Positions 1-7,455 of a DNA stretch of 11,355 bases are shown here, in pieces; position 1 is the stretch's first letter; each line of letters starts with the position of its first letter. Made by a program: the position numbers and the translations under genes. The notes beneath the pieces are model-generated. The model did not search any database. It was not told the origin of the DNA and saw only the letters and a program-made list of their open reading frames with translations. Origin of the DNA: Eubacteriales bacterium (GTDB taxonomy: Bacteria; Bacillota_A; Clostridia; Christensenellales; Aristaeellaceae); contig JARKQO010000284.1 of NCBI GenBank assembly GCA_029974855.1, positions 1 through 11,355 of the forward strand. Direction: 5' to 3'.

Positions 1-623
1 TGGGAGCCTGTGGGGCCTGGGATTCCCTCTGGGCCGGTGGCTCCCTGGCCACCGGCTGCACCCGTTGCGCCGGCCAGGCCTTGGATGCCCGTGGGCCCTT
101 GGGGGCCTACGGATCCAACCGGGCCCGTAATGCCGGCAATACCGGCCAAGCCCGTGGCGCCGGCCGGTCCCTCGGGGCCAATGTCTCCCTGGGGGCCGGG
201 CGCGCCGGTGGGGCCTGTGGGCCCCGTAGCGCCGGCAGCCCCGGCCAGCCCATCCGGGCCTGTGGGGCCTGTGGCCCCCGTGGCAGAACCCGTGGGACCT
301 GTGGGGCCCGTGGCCCCTGTGACCCCCGGAATGACCGGAGCGTTCAGGGCCGCGAAGGTTTTGGCGTTGATCATCATCTGGCCTTGGGCGGTGCTCTCCA
401 GCACGTCATGGATGCTTTCGTTGGCCTCCAACACGTCCTGGAGGGTGGCGCTGCCCCCGGTGAGGCCGGGCAAGGTGCCCAGCACAAATTGCAGCTTTTC
501 TCCCTCGGTGTTGAGGATATGGCTGAGTCCCAATTCCTCCATGGCGATGGAGGCCAGGACCATGTTAATGGCGTCAGCCCGGTCAATGGGCGGGCTGATC
601 GGCGGAAAACTAGGCTGTGACAT
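1..623 (-). CDS. Collagen-like surface protein, C-terminus beyond window (copy A)
   Basis: Reading from the ATG at 623, the frame stays open to the window edge (207 full codons), so the C-terminus is missing. Residues 1-100 form a globular or helical head that begins [12 protein letters not shown] and contains [20 protein letters not shown], nearly the same as the heads of the other two collagen-like genes here. From about residue 100 the protein is Gly-X-Y triplets rich in GAT, GPT and GPQ, with at least 35 triplets and one four-residue break (GSAT, about 112-115). The start is set by TAAGGAGGGAG seven bases upstream, which also contains the stop codon of the preceding gene. Collagen-like proteins with a short leader and a Thr-rich GXT tract are typical of exosporium filaments (BclA type). 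The spore-surface role is inferred from that family and the adjacent glycosyltransferase. A phage tail fibre or vegetative surface protein is the alternative. Confidence 0.88.
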
Positions 624-641
624 CTTCTTGCTCCCTCCTTA
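624..641 (-). promoter_or_regulatory. Stop codon merged with Shine-Dalgarno (copy B to copy A)
   Basis: TAAGGAGGGAG spans 641-631 on the minus strand, seven bases before the ATG at 623. As at the previous junction, the upstream stop codon TAA is embedded in the ribosome site. The repeated design supports one co-translated operon of three genes. Confidence 0.8.
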
Positions 642-1754
642 ATCGGACAGGCGCACAATCATCAGCGACGCGCCCACGGAACCAGGCAGAAGCACGGCCA
701 AGCCCGCCAGGTTAAACAGCTGCAAGGAGACCGTGGAGTTGACGGGCAAGTCCACCAGGATCTCGTTGGAGAAGTTGGTGAGCCCCAAAACGGGCATCAC
801 GGTGGAGGGCATACTGGCCGTGCCGTTGATGATCAGCCGCGTCCCCATGAGCAAAGAGGCGGTGGTGTTGACATGGTAAGAAAGGCGGTACCTTCCGGCC
901 GGGGCCACGGTGAAGATGTCGTCGTCCACATTGGGGGTGATTTCCGCCGGAAGCACCTGGGCGTCGGGCAGCTCCACCAAAGTGCCCAAAAGGGTTACGG
1001 TAATGGTGGAGCCGCTGGTGTTGGCGGCAAAACCGGACACATCGGTGATGTTGGAACCCGTAGGACCGGTGGGGCCCGTGGCGCCTTGGACTCCCGGAAT
1101 GCCCTGGGGCCCTTGCAAGCCCTGGGGGCCGTCAGGGCCGATGGGACCCTGGGGGCCGGGCGCGCCCGCCGGGCCTACCGAGCCGGTAGCGCCCGTGGCC
1201 CCTTGAGGCCCTTGCACGCCCTGAGCCCCGGTGGCTCCGGTAGCGCCCTGGGGCCCTGGCGCGCCGGCGGGACCCTGGGCTCCGGCGGGGCCTGTGGGGC
1301 CCGTTACCCCGGCGATGCCCGCCTCGCCCGTGGCCCCCGTGGGGCCTGTGGCGCCTGTGGCGCCGGTGGCCCCCGCAGCTCCCGCTGGGCCCGTGGCCCC
1401 GGTGGGGCCGCCCTCCGGGCCTGTGGGGCCCGTGGCGCCGGTGGCGCCGGTGGCCCCTTGCAGCTCGGAGGAATTGAGCGCATTCTGCATCTTGGTCTTA
1501 AAAAACAGCTGGTTCTGGGCCACGGTATCCAGCATAGAACGCACGCTGTCGTTGGCGGCCAGAACGTCGTCTACGGTGGCGGGAGGGCCGCTGATGCCGG
1601 GCAAGGTGCCCAGGATATACTGCAGCTTTTCACCCTCCGCGTTGATAATATGGCTAAGCCCCAGCTCCTCCATGGCAATGGATGCCAAAATTTGGTTCAC
1701 CACATCCTCGCGGGTAAAGGGAGGGCTGATGCTGGGAAAACTGGGTAAAGACAT
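639..1754 (-). CDS. BclA-like collagen-like protein (copy B)
   Basis: This 371-residue protein has three parts. Residues 1-99 are the head domain shared with copies A and C ([12 protein letters not shown], then [20 protein letters not shown]). Residues 100-235 are about 44 Gly-X-Y triplets, rich in GAT/GPT/GPQ with one GGPT break at 115-118. Residues 236-371 are a beta-rich C-terminal domain with alternating hydrophobic strands and no cysteine anywhere in the protein. The layout matches exosporium BclA-type proteins, in which a leader anchors, the collagen stalk trimerises and is O-glycosylated on Thr, and a C1q/TNF-like jellyroll caps the filament. The jellyroll assignment is by pattern, not a search. 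The gene lies 12 bases after the glycosyltransferase, whose TAA stop forms part of this gene's ribosome site. That suggests translational coupling and a shared pathway. Confidence 0.9.
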
Positions 1755-3108: not shown

Positions 3109-4071
3109 ATGTCACTCCCTACATTCCCATCCATAAGCCCCGAAATCACCCGCGATCAGGCGCTGAACATGATTCTGACGTCCATCGCCATGGAGGAGCT
3201 GGGGCTCAGCCATATCATCAACGCCGAGGGCGAAAAGCTGCAATATGTTTTAGGCACGCTGCCAGGGGCTCCCCAGCTGGATTTGTGCCTGGAGGACATC
3301 ATCCGGATCAACGACAGCGTAGGCAGCCTGCTGAACAACGTGATGCAAAACCAAGTGTTTCTGAAAAACAAGATGGAGCGGGTGCTGGACGGTATCGGCA
3401 AGATTCCCCCGGGCCCCACGGGCCCTACGGGAGCCACCGGAGCCACGGGAGCGCCGGGACCTACCGGAGCCACGGGGCCCCAGGGACCGGAGGGACCTAT
3501 CGGGCCTACGGGCCCCAGCGGCGGCCCGCCCGGCCCCCCGGGAGCTACGGGGGCCACAGGACCCCCCGGAGCCATGGGCCCCGCCGGGGCTATGGGACCC
3601 CAGGGCGCAACCGGGGCCACCGGCCCGGCAGGCCCGCCCGGCCTCCTGTGCGCCGCGGCCTTCCAGGGGCAAAACCCACAGGAAATATGGCAATCCGGCT
3701 GCGCCCTGCCCCTGTGCGCCCTGTGCGAAAAGCCCTGCTGCGGCATCCGCCTGTCCCCCGATTGCGTCCATATCCTACTGCCACCAGGAGGTTGTTATCT
3801 GGTCTCCTTTTCCGCTACCCTGGTGGCTACCCACAACTGCTTAAGCGGCGTCAATATCGCCTTGCAAACGATATGCGGATCGCTGGATCAGGAGGTGTTC
3901 CATTACCACATGCCCTTCACCCTTCCCATCAACACGGCGCTGACGGCCAGCCTGGGGAGCGTGCCGGTGTCCACCCAGGGGATGGGCGGGGACTGCGCCT
4001 TGCGCTTGACCTTGATTTCCCCTCATAATATTTTGGTGTACAATGCCGCCCTCAGCGTGACCGCGCTGTAG
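3109..4071 (+). CDS. Collagen-like protein with cysteine-rich C-terminal domain (copy C)
   Basis: This 320-residue protein shares its first ~95 residues with copies A and B ([31 protein letters not shown]). Residues 102-180 hold about 26 Gly-X-Y triplets with a single GGPP break in the middle. The tract is shorter than in copy B and relatively rich in GPP and GPQ. The C-terminal 140 residues keep a beta-rich pattern ([23 protein letters not shown]) like the cap of BclA-type proteins, but carry 11 cysteines (C181, C198, C203, C206, C210, C211, C219, C229, C244, C256, C296), whereas copy B has none. Disulfide crosslinking or metal binding in the mature spore surface is a reasonable inference. 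The start is fixed by AAAGGAGG seven bases upstream. It is divergent from the glycosyltransferase operon and probably under the same sigma factor, so it may also be an acceptor of that enzyme. Confidence 0.88.
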
Positions 4072-4277: not shown

Positions 4278-5831
4278 ATGAATCCAGAAAAGCACCTTTC
4301 CAACCCGGCATCCGGGTTTTCCCGTTGGATGGCTGCGGCCCTGGTCCTCTGCCTGGCTCTGGTCCACCCCCTTGCCGCCGCCTTTTTGCGGGCCGGGCCG
4401 GGTGGCCAAAGGGCCTGGGTGGCCTATGCCTCGGCCCCCGCGCCCCGGGAGGATGGGTGGGCGCTGTCCGATGTGCACTATACCGTTGACTTTGAGAGAC
4501 TGCACAAGGTAAACCCGGAGATACGCGGCTGGCTTTTGCAAAAGGGCGGTCCCATCAACGACCCTGTGGTCCAGGGCCCGGACAATGACTTCTACCAAAC
4601 CCATCTCTTTACCCAAAAATACGACCTGGTAGGGGCCCTGTATCTGGACAGCGCCAATGACGGAGCCTTTGGGGACAGGATCACCTGGCTTTATGGAAAT
4701 TGCCAGGAGGAGGGCGCGATCTTCGCCTCTCTGCCCCGATACCTGGAGCAGGCCTATGCGGAGGATTATCCTTCCTTTTTCCTGCTGACCCCCTCCGGAG
4801 ACTACCAGGTGGATATCTTTGCCAGCGTTGTGGACGGGGCGGAGCAAGGGGAGCGTTGGGCCTTGCGGCCCTGGGGAAGCCGGGGGGACTTTGAGGCCTA
4901 TGTAGGGGAAATCCGCAAGGCCTCCGCCATCCAGACTCAGATCTCCGTGCAATGGGGGGACAGGCTGCTGGCCCTGTGCGCGGGCGCGCCCGACGCCAAG
5001 GGGGACCGCCCCATCGTCTTTGGCAAGCTCCGGCCCCTTTCCTATGCCTCGGACAAGCCCCTGGACGTGACCAAAATGAAAATGGACGCTTTGGAAGGCG
5101 TCAGCAAAAAGGTGTATATTCCAGGGCGCGGGGTGATGCGGTATTATGCCCAAAACGACCCCATTTGGACCCGGATGCGCTATGAGGCCATCAACAGCAA
5201 TAAATCCCGCCATTTTGGACAGGGCGGCTGCGCCCCCACGGCGGTGGCCATGGCCCTGGCCAACGTCGCCACAGACCAGCAGTTGGAGATGCTCACCGCC
5301 TTTACCCGCAAGGAGAACGGCTTTACCTTCTGCCCCTGCTCCGTGAATCAGTTCTATTGCAGCGGCAGGCACTTGCGGTACAAGATCGAGACGGCGCAAG
5401 AGATGCGGCGGTACCTGCCCGTGGCGGTGGCCAGCTTTGCCTCGGGCAACAATCTGTGGAACCATAAATCCCGGGGCAGGGGCTATGGCACCGGGCCGCA
5501 CTTTATCCAGATGATCGCGGACATCTGCCAGCTAAAATTCAGCGCCGCCCGCTCCCTGAACGACGCCCTGGACACCCTGGCGGCGGGCGGCATCGCCGTG
5601 GTGACCACCACCGGAAGGGACAGCCCCTTTACAGGGGGGGATCATTACCTGGTGCTGGCCCACGCGGATGAGGAGTACCTCTATTTTCTGGACAGCTTTC
5701 TCAAAGGGGACTATTCCCGGACGGACCGCCGGGGGCTTTTGACGGTGCTGGAGCCCGGGGTTGTGCGGGCCAACCGGGCGGATATTAAGAAGCTTCTTCT
5801 CTACAGCTATTATCTGCTTCAGCAACCCTGA
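4278..5831 (+). CDS. Exported degenerate sortase B - C39-like peptidase fusion
   Basis: This 517-residue protein has a hydrophobic signal or anchor at about 17-36. Residues 66-252 follow the class B sortase pattern: VNPEIRGWL, PVVQGPDNDFYQTHLF, GALYLDSAND, DRITWLYGN, LALC, RPIVFGKL. The catalytic Cys (C234) and Arg (R244) are kept at the spacing of S. aureus SrtB (Cys223, Arg233). The position of SrtB His130, 93 residues before the Cys, is Asn141, so transpeptidation is probably lost. Residues 280-475 resemble a C39-type papain-like peptidase: YYAQNDPIW, Cys318 in GQGGCAPTAVAMAL, His456 in GGDHYLVLAHAD and Asp472 in FLDSF. That triad looks intact. The likely role is an extracytoplasmic cysteine peptidase using the sortase fold for binding or placement (inference). 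No LPXTG-type substrate is in the window. GGAG lies eight bases before the ATG, and the gene appears to be alone on its transcript. Confidence 0.82.
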   Translation: MNPEKHLSNPASGFSRWMAAALVLCLALVHPLAAAFLRAGPGGQRAWVAYASAPAPREDGWALSDVHYTVDFERLHKVNPEIRGWLLQKGGPINDPVVQGPDNDFYQTHLFTQKYDLVGALYLDSANDGAFGDRITWLYGNCQEEGAIFASLPRYLEQAYAEDYPSFFLLTPSGDYQVDIFASVVDGAEQGERWALRPWGSRGDFEAYVGEIRKASAIQTQISVQWGDRLLALCAGAPDAKGDRPIVFGKLRPLSYASDKPLDVTKMKMDALEGVSKKVYIPGRGVMRYYAQNDPIWTRMRYEAINSNKSRHFGQGGCAPTAVAMALANVATDQQLEMLTAFTRKENGFTFCPCSVNQFYCSGRHLRYKIETAQEMRRYLPVAVASFASGNNLWNHKSRGRGYGTGPHFIQMIADICQLKFSAARSLNDALDTLAAGGIAVVTTTGRDSPFTGGDHYLVLAHADEEYLYFLDSFLKGDYSRTDRRGLLTVLEPGVVRANRADIKKLLLYSYYLLQQP

Positions 5832-5942: not shown

Positions 5943-6989
5943 TTATTCCAGCGCCAGGGAAATGGGTGCAAACTCCTCCCCAGTGTCGCTCCGGTACGGT
6001 ACCAGCTCCAGCGCCTGGGGCCAACCCTTCAGGCGCTCATACACCTGTTCCACTGTTTCCTGATAGTGCCAGGAGGCGTCGTCGCTGTATTTCCGCCCGC
6101 CGGTGAGGAGGCCATAGGAGCGGCCTTCCCCATCCCGCAGCCTGAACCAGAGGCTGCCATATTGTTCCATCCAATCCTCCAGGTTCTCTTGATCCACCCG
6201 GTAGGTGGCCCTTACATAGGTGGCCAGCGGGGTCAAGGTCACTTCCGCCTGGGTCAAGATGATCCCCAGCCCCTGGACCTGCACCGGCGTTTGCGCCCGC
6301 CTCCGGGTGTGGGCCATGTCCTCCGCCCGGATGGACACCTCCACCTGGGCCTGCTCCAAGTCCCTCTGCTGCCCTTGCCCGTCCAGAAGGCGCACGCCGG
6401 GGGCGAACACAAGACGCAGTGGGCCACCGGAACCCGGCCTGCTCCCCACGTCAATCACATAGTGCATCAGCACCGTTTGCTCATCCAGGCTTTTCCAGTC
6501 CCGCCCGGCCAAGTACAGGTTTTCCCCCATGGCCTCATTCTGCCACAGCACCAAATGCCGCCCCTCCTGGGGCGGTCTTTCCGCCCGGGGGTCAAACTCG
6601 CTCAGCAGCACATCCCGGGAACCCTTGGCCTGAAACTCCACAGCCAGAAACACGGAGCTCCCGTCCGTCACCGCGTCCCGCACCGTGACGCGAACCGATT
6701 CCAACTCCCCGCCCTGTTGGGCAAAGCCGCTTTGGAGACGGTTTTGAACCTCCTGGGGCGCTTCTGTGCCGGGAAAAAGAAAATCAAAGGTTCCCAGGCT
6801 GTGGGCCGCTAAGGCGGCTCCCGCCAGGGCCAGCAGCAGCGCAAAGGCCACCGCCAGACCGGACACCTTCCTCACCCGGGGGCCTTCTTCCAACTGCCCG
6901 CAGGCCTTGCGCATCCCCAGGCGGTACTCCTGGGGCGCGTTCCCATAGGCTTTTTGCAATCTGCTTTGCAGCTCCGTCCTCTCCTTCAT
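5943..6989 (-). CDS. Membrane-anchored presumed anti-sigma factor
   Basis: This 348-residue protein has a cytoplasmic N-terminus of about 42 residues rich in charge (MKERTELQSRLQKAYG), one membrane helix at about 43-62, and an outside region of about 285 residues. The outside region is beta-rich (VRVTVRDAVTDGSSVFLAVEF, ILTQAEVTLTPLATYVRATYRV), a layout like DUF4179-type proteins of Firmicutes. It begins four bases after the sigma factor stop, with AGGAGG inside the end of the sigma gene, so the two are translationally coupled. By context it should hold the sigma factor at the membrane until an outside signal is sensed. No zinc-binding HxxxCxxC anti-sigma motif is visible, so binding to the sigma factor is inferred from gene order. 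The signal is unknown. Confidence 0.75.
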   Translation of the reverse strand: MKERTELQSRLQKAYGNAPQEYRLGMRKACGQLEEGPRVRKVSGLAVAFALLLALAGAALAAHSLGTFDFLFPGTEAPQEVQNRLQSGFAQQGGELESVRVTVRDAVTDGSSVFLAVEFQAKGSRDVLLSEFDPRAERPPQEGRHLVLWQNEAMGENLYLAGRDWKSLDEQTVLMHYVIDVGSRPGSGGPLRLVFAPGVRLLDGQGQQRDLEQAQVEVSIRAEDMAHTRRRAQTPVQVQGLGIILTQAEVTLTPLATYVRATYRVDQENLEDWMEQYGSLWFRLRDGEGRSYGLLTGGRKYSDDASWHYQETVEQVYERLKGWPQALELVPYRSDTGEEFAPISLALE

Positions 6990-6993
6990 GGCC

Positions 6994-7455
6994 CTACACC
7001 TCCTCTTTCCATTGGGCCCTCAGCTGCTCCCGGGCGCGGCTGAGGCGGGATTTCACCGTGCCCAAGGGAACCCCCAGGACCTTGGCTACCTCCGCCACAG
7101 GCCAGCCCTCCATATAGTGCAGCGCCACCACCTCCCGCAGGGGCAAGGGCAATGCCTCCACGCAGTGCTTCAATGCCAGGTCGGGAGCCCCGGCCTCCTG
7201 CTGCTGAGGAATGTCCGTCAGCACCATGTTGCGGCTTTTTCGCAGCAGCGTATGGCATTCATTCACCAAGATCCGCATCAGCCAGGGCTTGAAGCGTTCT
7301 CTTTTCCTCAGCTGATGGCGGTTTTGCCAGGCCCGCAGCAGGCAGCTTTGCATGGCGTCCTGCCGGTCCTGGGGCCTGCGAAGCAGCATGGAGCTGACCC
7401 GGTACATCGTGTCCGCCAGCGCCATGGCCCGGTCCTCAAAGTCGTCCTTTGTCAT
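6994..7455 (-). CDS. ECF-family RNA polymerase sigma factor
   Basis: This 153-residue protein is the usual ECF size. Region 2 spans about 8-76, with the core-binding and -10 recognition helices (DRQDAMQSCLLRAWQNRHQL, RFKPWLMRILVNECHTLLRK). A short linker leads to region 4 at about 97-146, whose helix-turn-helix reads VAEVAKVLGVPLGTVKSRLSRAREQL. The start has AAGGAGG nine bases upstream. It directly precedes the membrane protein gene that should be its anti-sigma factor. The upstream region has an ECF-type promoter candidate, so it probably activates its own operon. Other targets cannot be told from this window, and no second copy of the same promoter motif was noticed. Confidence 0.92.
   Translation of the reverse strand: MTKDDFEDRAMALADTMYRVSSMLLRRPQDRQDAMQSCLLRAWQNRHQLRKRERFKPWLMRILVNECHTLLRKSRNMVLTDIPQQQEAGAPDLALKHCVEALPLPLREVVALHYMEGWPVAEVAKVLGVPLGTVKSRLSRAREQLRAQWKEEV

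What the first reader, a model, noticed from the sequence alone, without database searches (positions are those of the whole stretch)
4278..5831. Pseudo-sortase fused to a C39-like cysteine peptidase
A class B sortase pattern has Cys234 and Arg244 at exactly the SrtB spacing, but the His position (93 residues before the Cys, as in S. aureus SrtB) is Asn141, one base change from CAT to AAT. Downstream in the same chain is a papain-like C39 domain with an apparently intact Cys318/His456/Asp472 triad. A dead transpeptidase fold joined to a live peptidase would be a repurposed sortase, perhaps binding sorting-signal-like peptides for cleavage or protecting a pilin or surface substrate.
Basis: partly seen in the sequence, partly recalled or inferred. 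Interest (0 to 1): 0.8.

Follow-up and report, generated by a model that had tools for sequence, protein, structure and literature searches.

The report
Dead sortase fused to cysteine peptidase
A bacterial protein joins a burnt-out protein-anchoring enzyme to an apparently intact cysteine peptidase, and its relatives suggest that the anchoring half has died several times over in copies that have no sticky surface protein gene beside them.

Summary
The ORF at 4278-5831 is real: a class B sortase fold (residues 65-255) followed by a papain-like C39-type peptidase (282-517). Against 27 relatives with an intact sortase, the His is Asn141 and the catalytic Cys position is Gly236. Cys234 is a non-catalytic neighbour, so its SrtB-like spacing to Arg244 is a coincidence. 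The peptidase triad Cys318/His456/Asp472 is intact, with a CxC-C-H motif (candidate metal site).

The protein belongs to a sortase-peptidase family, apparently undescribed, found in Clostridia MAGs. Of 78 members, 27 keep His and Cys, 23 are scored dead, 28 have the peptidase only. If losses are irreversible, the sortase died at least three times. All 9 intact copies with upstream DNA have a nearby adhesin gene with a conserved tail (DGEWxYIDExGxPLGxVPxTGD), Cna_B-bearing in 8 of 9. None of 14 dead copies, the window included, has one. Dead copies also lack the long membrane stalk.

Best reading: a stalked adhesin-anchoring enzyme that, in lineages without the adhesin, became a surface or secreted peptidase carrying a pseudo-sortase module. 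What the peptidase cuts is unknown.

The parts
4278..5831 (+). Sortase-C39 fusion gene, 517 aa
   Evidence: ORF and translation; both domains in the model
4314..4391 (+). N-terminal hydrophobic helix, residues 13-38: signal peptide or membrane anchor (not decided)
   Evidence: Helix 13-38 in the model; read by eye, no signal-peptide predictor was run
4473..5042 (+). Degenerate class B sortase domain, residues 66-255
4698..4700 (+). Asn141 at the catalytic His position
   Evidence: Alignment with 27 intact rows; codon checked
4977..4979 (+). Cys234, non-catalytic position two before the nucleophile column
   Evidence: Column is C/V/S = 12/9/6 in 27 intact rows
4983..4985 (+). Gly236 at the catalytic Cys position
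   Evidence: Cys in 27 of 27 intact rows, in 0 of 22 dead rows
5007..5009 (+). Arg244, retained catalytic Arg
   Evidence: Arg in 27 of 27 intact and 18 of 22 dead rows
5121..5828 (+). Papain-like C39-type peptidase domain, residues 282-517
5229..5231 (+). Cys318, peptidase nucleophile
   Evidence: 75 of 78 rows
5331..5372 (+). CxC-x6-C-x3-H motif (Cys352, Cys354, Cys361, His365), candidate metal site
   Evidence: All four in 72 of 78 rows, with Cys-to-His swaps and joint loss among the exceptions
5643..5645 (+). His456, peptidase triad
   Evidence: 78 of 78 rows
5691..5693 (+). Asp472, peptidase triad
   Evidence: 78 of 78 rows

Best explanation
This is a surface or secreted papain-like cysteine peptidase carrying a degenerate class B sortase domain. 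It derives from a stalked, membrane-bound fusion enzyme. In that form (relatives L001, L003, L006, L009 and others) the sortase half probably anchors a neighbouring Cna_B-type adhesin or base pilin through the tail DGEWxYIDExGxPLGxVPxTGD, while the peptidase half works on the same envelope. In the window lineage the stalk went first, then the sortase His and Cys; beside dead copies the adhesin gene is absent. The peptidase stayed under selection, and the sortase fold remains as a non-catalytic module, most likely for positioning, docking or folding. Shown by sequence and models: the folds, the residues lost and kept, the repeated losses, the gene linkage. Inferred: that the sortase half anchors that adhesin, that the peptidase is active, the order of loss, and the role of the pseudo-sortase.
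For: Folds. His and Cys both present in 27 rows and both absent in 22 readable dead rows, never one alone. Dead rows need 4 changes on the tree, 3 forced by starred branches; one clade rejected; four irreversible losses on the best tree. Adhesin tail near 9 of 9 intact copies with upstream DNA and 0 of 14 dead copies; Cna_B in 8 of 9 tail genes; all 3 independent contrasts agree. Intact and dead copies share a downstream P-type ATPase gene, so adhesin-bearing and adhesin-less versions of one locus exist. Stalk: 24 of 25 intact rows have 104-341 aa before the sortase, dead rows 24-110 aa. Peptidase triad complete in 23 of 23 dead rows.
Against: The window's own genome is not held, so loss of an adhesin there is not shown beyond 4.3 kb upstream and 5.5 kb downstream. 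P0003 and P0004, sisters of the window pair, keep His and Cys with a short N-terminus, so the stalk contrast fails in this lineage (2 of 3 contrasts agree, 1 shows no difference), and their surroundings are unknown. Only 3 independent contrasts exist; sign tests give p 0.25 and 0.5. G004 and G005 have an intact copy at a contig end and no tail match. Three intact-sortase rows have lost the peptidase Cys, so the peptidase is dispensable in some adhesin-linked forms. No enzymatic activity was shown anywhere.
Confidence: 0.55

Rival explanations
1. Repurposed receptor: the pseudo-sortase still binds a peptide (a sorting-signal-like peptide or a peptidoglycan stem peptide) and presents it to the peptidase.
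For: Arg244 kept in 18 of 22 dead rows; F72, Y106, P172, F181, A182 and W194 in 22 of 22. Low omega for the dead domain in one clade: L094/L096 0.22 (peptidase half 0.18), L093/L095 0.23 (0.30). The domain persists in 23 rows although 28 relatives do without it.
Against: No adhesin tail beside 14 of 14 dead copies; no strong tail match in 8 of 8 genomes without an intact copy. Another dead pair has omega 0.57. The conserved positions are partly those that any fold would keep.
Confidence: 0.2
2. Passive relic: the sortase half is only a spacer or folding scaffold in slow decay, kept because it lies in frame before the peptidase.
For: Dead sortase domains are less alike than their peptidase halves in 7 of 8 dead pairs, by 7 to 25 points, equal in the eighth; intact pairs are lower in 3 of 5, by 2 to 10 points. 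Omega 0.57 against 0.36 in L015/L017. Dead rows keep 15 to 33 of 42 live-conserved positions, the window 29.
Against: Low omega in another dead clade; full-length domain in 22 of 22 readable dead rows although peptidase-only forms exist.
Confidence: 0.2
3. The sortase half is still active, with Cys234 as nucleophile and some other residue in place of His.
For: A Cys lies at the S. aureus SrtB distance from Arg244, and phmmer aligns it with the SrtB nucleophile.
Against: Close relatives align without gaps and show the nucleophile at 236; 234 is C, V or S in intact rows. The window has Asn at the His column, its sister P0002 has Ser, and both have Gly at the Cys column.
Confidence: 0.02

Closest known systems
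Class B sortases (SrtB; TIGR03064; PDB 1qwz, 5jcv, 3psq)
   Same: Fold of residues 65-255 and sequence match; intact relatives P0005, P0009 and P0011 pass the TIGR03064 cut-off
   Different: The window lacks His and Cys, scores 106.3 against a cut-off of 153.75, and has a C-terminal peptidase
Peptidase_C39_2 (PF13529) and papain-like relatives (3erv, PeiR 8z4n, staphopain 1cv8)
   Different: A CxC-C-H motif and about 100 residues outside the aligned core (142 of 240 aligned to 8z4n); fused to a sortase
SipA of Streptococcus pyogenes pili (PMC4049620; abstract read)
   Same: A pseudo-enzyme of the secretion/anchoring machinery kept at the cell surface: peptidase fold without catalytic residues, needed with a sortase for pilus assembly
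   Different: Mirror image: there the peptidase is dead and the sortase works, on separate chains and in a pilus operon
SrtB-AbpA of oral streptococci (PMC4974636; search listing and start of abstract only)
   Same: A sortase B encoded at one locus with its own adhesin, which bears a distinct C-terminal sorting signal, as beside the intact relatives
   Different: The part of the abstract that was listed mentions no fused peptidase; there the sortase is active

Membership tests
Class B sortase (active enzyme) | SrtB fold | tested here: met
Class B sortase (active enzyme) | His-Cys-Arg catalytic residues | tested here: not met
   Asn141 and Gly236; only Arg244 kept
Class B sortase (active enzyme) | NCBIfam TIGR03064 equivalog cut-off 153.75 bits | tested here: not met
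   Window 106.3; intact P0005 170.3, P0011 169.9, P0009 168.9; dead P0026 36.8
Class B sortase (active enzyme) | Membrane anchoring | tested here: inconclusive
   Helix 13-38 in the model; anchor or signal peptide not decided
Peptidase_C39_2 (PF13529) | Pfam gathering score 24 bits | tested here: not met
   23.3 bits, E 1e-4; five relatives (P0005, P0009, P0011, P0026, P0032) pass
Peptidase_C39_2 (PF13529) | Cys-His-Asp triad on a papain-like fold | tested here: met
Peptidase_C39_2 (PF13529) | Peptidase activity | not testable with these tools
   Needs an assay
Sortase-C39 fusion family described here | SrtB domain followed by C39 domain with CxC-C-H motif | tested here: met
   Alignment over both domains with 25 other proteins; motif intact
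Sortase-C39 fusion family, adhesin-linked form | Adhesin gene with DGEWxYIDExGxPLGxVPxTGD tail just upstream, and a long stalk | tested here: not met
   No tail in the window; 65 residues before the sortase domain. The rest of the genome is not held
SipA-like pilus pseudo-enzyme | Lies in a pilus gene cluster | tested here: not met
   Window neighbours are collagen-like, glycosyltransferase, sigma-factor and other genes; no sorting signal found

The most novel reading that the evidence does not exclude
A two-headed envelope enzyme: a class B sortase and a metal-bearing papain-like peptidase in one stalked chain act in sequence on one adhesin, with the extended tail DGEWxYIDExGxPLG as a second recognition element beside the sorting signal. 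Once the adhesin is lost, the sortase half is repeatedly turned into a non-catalytic targeting module for the peptidase. The window protein would be a caught example of an enzyme becoming a pseudo-enzyme inside a fusion.
Probability: 0.25. Interest if true: 0.75.

Novelty: new variant of a known kind. Interest (0 to 1): 0.56.

Why it matters
Pseudo-sortases seem hardly reported: a search for pseudo-sortase and inactive-sortase phrases found two papers, each with one use of 'inactive sortase', both on Lactococcus pili (listing), and no held paper joined sortase terms with C39 terms. A family in which one domain is intact beside its likely substrate gene and dead without it is a natural experiment on how enzymes become pseudo-enzymes. 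It also points to a class of sortase substrates with an extended, testable recognition tail, and to an envelope peptidase with a candidate metal site in little-studied Clostridia.

Tried and rejected
Rejected: Cys234 as nucleophile. The Asn as a trait of the whole family. A phage origin: a scan of viral contigs with A2 gave 3 weak matches, nearly all to the peptidase part (query residues 287-408, 248-330 and 289-326), in contigs of 234-250 kb; not followed up.

Peptidase-only neighbourhoods as a clue to function: in 18 of 25 loci one gene cluster (yebC-like; name recalled) lies directly upstream, and in 11 of 25 another (spoIVFB-like; name recalled) downstream on the other strand. This looks like a fixed position more than function.

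Fold rankings among papain-like enzymes (PeiR, C39 transporter domains, staphopain) lie within about 1 Z unit, so an endoisopeptidase-like role was not claimed. Foldseek on the peptidase model put human calpains first, at E 3e-4 with rmsd near 12.

Looser patterns misfire: the first signal pattern also flagged P-type ATPases and a histidine-kinase-like protein, and the scan gave one out-of-frame hit in L011 on the other strand, which I discarded.

Dropped rows: P0006 and P0012 (near-duplicates of P0005 and P0011 by name or alignment) and P0028-P0031 and P0034 (sortase-only or other) were left out of the 78 rows. Two near-identical pairs stayed in (L016/P0026, L041/L042). L019 (N-terminus cut off) was scored dead by hand from its Cys column and left out of the 22-row counts. 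L004, L019 and P0003 were left out of the stalk counts.

Survey of the order: E<=1e-50 matches in 16 of 297 genomes; two-domain genes in 3 of the 297 (G001, G159 and G237, of which only G237 was new); the others peptidase-only or sortase-part-only. At most 4 candidates a genome were scored there.

Full report
What is there. The ORF 4278-5831 is a 517-residue protein. A model from 30 sequences (pLDDT 87.8) has a class B sortase fold at about 65-255 and a papain-like fold at 282-517. Asn141 stands where sortases have His. The peptidase triad Cys318, His456, Asp472 is present.

Correction of the observation. Of 31 proteins listed (the window included) carry both domains. They show that the window's nucleophile position is Gly236, not Cys234. 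Intact rows read CTC, VTC or STC at 234-236, with Arg 7-8 residues after the Cys. The fit of 93 and 10 residues to S. aureus SrtB is an accident of a Cys two positions early. The sortase has lost both catalytic groups. The sister protein P0002 has Ser and Gly at the two positions, so a sequencing error in the window is unlikely.

The family. A scan of genome contigs with alignment A2 found 44 loci; the scan with the single sequence had found none. With proteins and further copies from whole genomes, 78 rows were compared: 27 intact sortases, 23 dead, 28 without sortase. The record titles are Clostridia-type MAGs; three (L005, L019, L031) say Christensenellaceae. Six genomes hold an intact and a dead copy: G001, G002, G006, G007, G008, G237. 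In a survey of the order two-domain genes were seen in 3 of 297 genomes, so the fusion is uncommon. The window's own host is unknown.

Repeated death of the sortase. On a tree of the peptidase domain the dead rows need 4 changes, at least 3 forced by starred branches. Holding them in one clade is rejected (p 6e-39). If losses are irreversible the best tree has four, the window with P0002 being one. His and Cys are gone in all 22 readable dead rows, and no row has lost only one; Arg244 stays in 18 of 22. The peptidase Cys is missing in L002, P0016 and L098, all with an intact sortase, on two branches of the tree. No row of 50 has both halves dead, which with three cases could be chance.

The partner. 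Near intact copies lies a gene ending in DGEWxYIDExGxPLGxVPxTGD, a hydrophobic stretch and basic residues: 9 of 9 with upstream DNA (L001, L002, L003, L006, L007, L009, L010, L012, L098). It is the next gene upstream in 8; in L007 it is the second, and the next gene there (2704 aa, Cna_B and FctA domains) ends otherwise. Pfam finds Cna_B domains in 8 of the 9 tail genes, up to 30 copies; the ninth is a 120-residue remnant at a contig end without a match. L001 and L098 also have a separate sortase gene nearby, and L001 a backbone-pilin gene, so there the fusion sits in a pilus-type operon. Of 14 dead copies with at least 3.6 kb upstream, none has the tail (L011, L013-L018, L092-L096, L099 and the window). 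The search pattern was written after six of the nine tails had been seen. Intact copies (L003, L006-L010, L012) and dead ones (L011, L013, L016, L092, L099) have the same downstream gene, 51-60% identical to that of L099, a P-type ATPase by Pfam in the three scanned. So the same locus occurs with and without the adhesin. Three more intact copies (L004, L005, L008) lie at contig ends and tell nothing.

Genome level. Of 19 genomes searched with the tail alignment, 9 of 11 with an intact copy match strongly and 0 of 8 without one do; four of the eight have weak partial matches at E 2e-5 to 8e-4. Eight of the nine are there by construction, since their own tails built the query. Independent items are G159 (tail on another contig), further tail genes in G002, G007 and G008, and the absences. 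G004 and G005, intact but without a match, count against.

Stalk. Intact rows have a hydrophobic segment and usually a Pro/Thr-rich stretch before the sortase (44-341 aa; 24 of 25 at 104 or more). Dead ones have 24-110 aa (22 measured), often ending in what reads by eye like a signal-peptidase site. P0004, an intact sister of the window lineage, is the short exception (44 aa); P0003 is shorter still, with an unsure start. Both keep only 33-34 of 42 positions that the other intact rows keep at 38 or more. This suggests that stalk and constraint went before His and Cys, an inference from two sequences. Over independent contrasts, adhesin and sortase state agree in 3 of 3, stalk and sortase state in 2 of 3 with 1 tie; neither can reach significance.

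Selection. Dead sortase domains are less alike than their peptidase halves in 7 of 8 dead pairs and equal in one; among 5 intact pairs the sortase is lower in 3, by smaller margins. Omega in dead pairs is 0.22 and 0.23 in one clade, against 0.18 and 0.30 in the peptidase half, and 0.57 against 0.36 in another. Synonymous sites are near saturation, so these are rough. Both reuse and slow decay remain possible.

Literature. No held paper joined sortase and C39 terms, and pseudo- or inactive-sortase phrases gave two papers on Lactococcus pili (listing). SipA (abstract) is a mirror case. Subscription papers are mostly not in the library.

Verdict. A real and doubly dead sortase in an apparently undescribed sortase-peptidase family, with a clear partner gene beside its intact relatives. 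The function of the window protein is inferred to rest on its peptidase half; the substrate is unknown.

Noticed in passing
window 3-623 (-), 639-1754 (-), 3109-4071 (+): Three collagen-like (GXY-repeat) proteins with a shared N-terminal leader; the one at 639-1754 has a BclA C-terminal domain (PF18573), which suggests spore-surface proteins. A glycosyltransferase-2/TPR gene lies between them (1767-2912, -).
   Followed up: partly
window 5943-6989 (-), 6994-7455 (-): ECF-type sigma factor next to a protein with a weak, below-cut-off DUF5643 match, a likely sigma/anti-sigma pair downstream of the fusion gene on the other strand.
   Followed up: no
L014, L093, L094, L096, upstream of the dead copy: A divergent block conserved by BLAST (genes 1-3 in all four loci, gene 4 in three): DUF6273, NAGPA phosphodiester glycosidase, C-type lectin with TPR, and an LGT-like protein (Pfam run on L093 only).
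   Followed up: partly
L020-L044: Peptidase-only relatives sit in a fixed place: a yebC-like gene directly upstream in 18 of 25 loci and a spoIVFB-like gene downstream on the other strand in 11 of 25 (gene names recalled).
   Followed up: partly
G002:C306, G007:C38, G008:C2, G159:C75: Further genes with the same adhesin tail away from the fusion gene, so one fusion enzyme may serve several adhesins.
   Followed up: no
L004:809-1525, L005:1692-2408: Two related intact-sortase rows have lost three or four of the candidate metal ligands together while keeping the peptidase triad.
   Followed up: no
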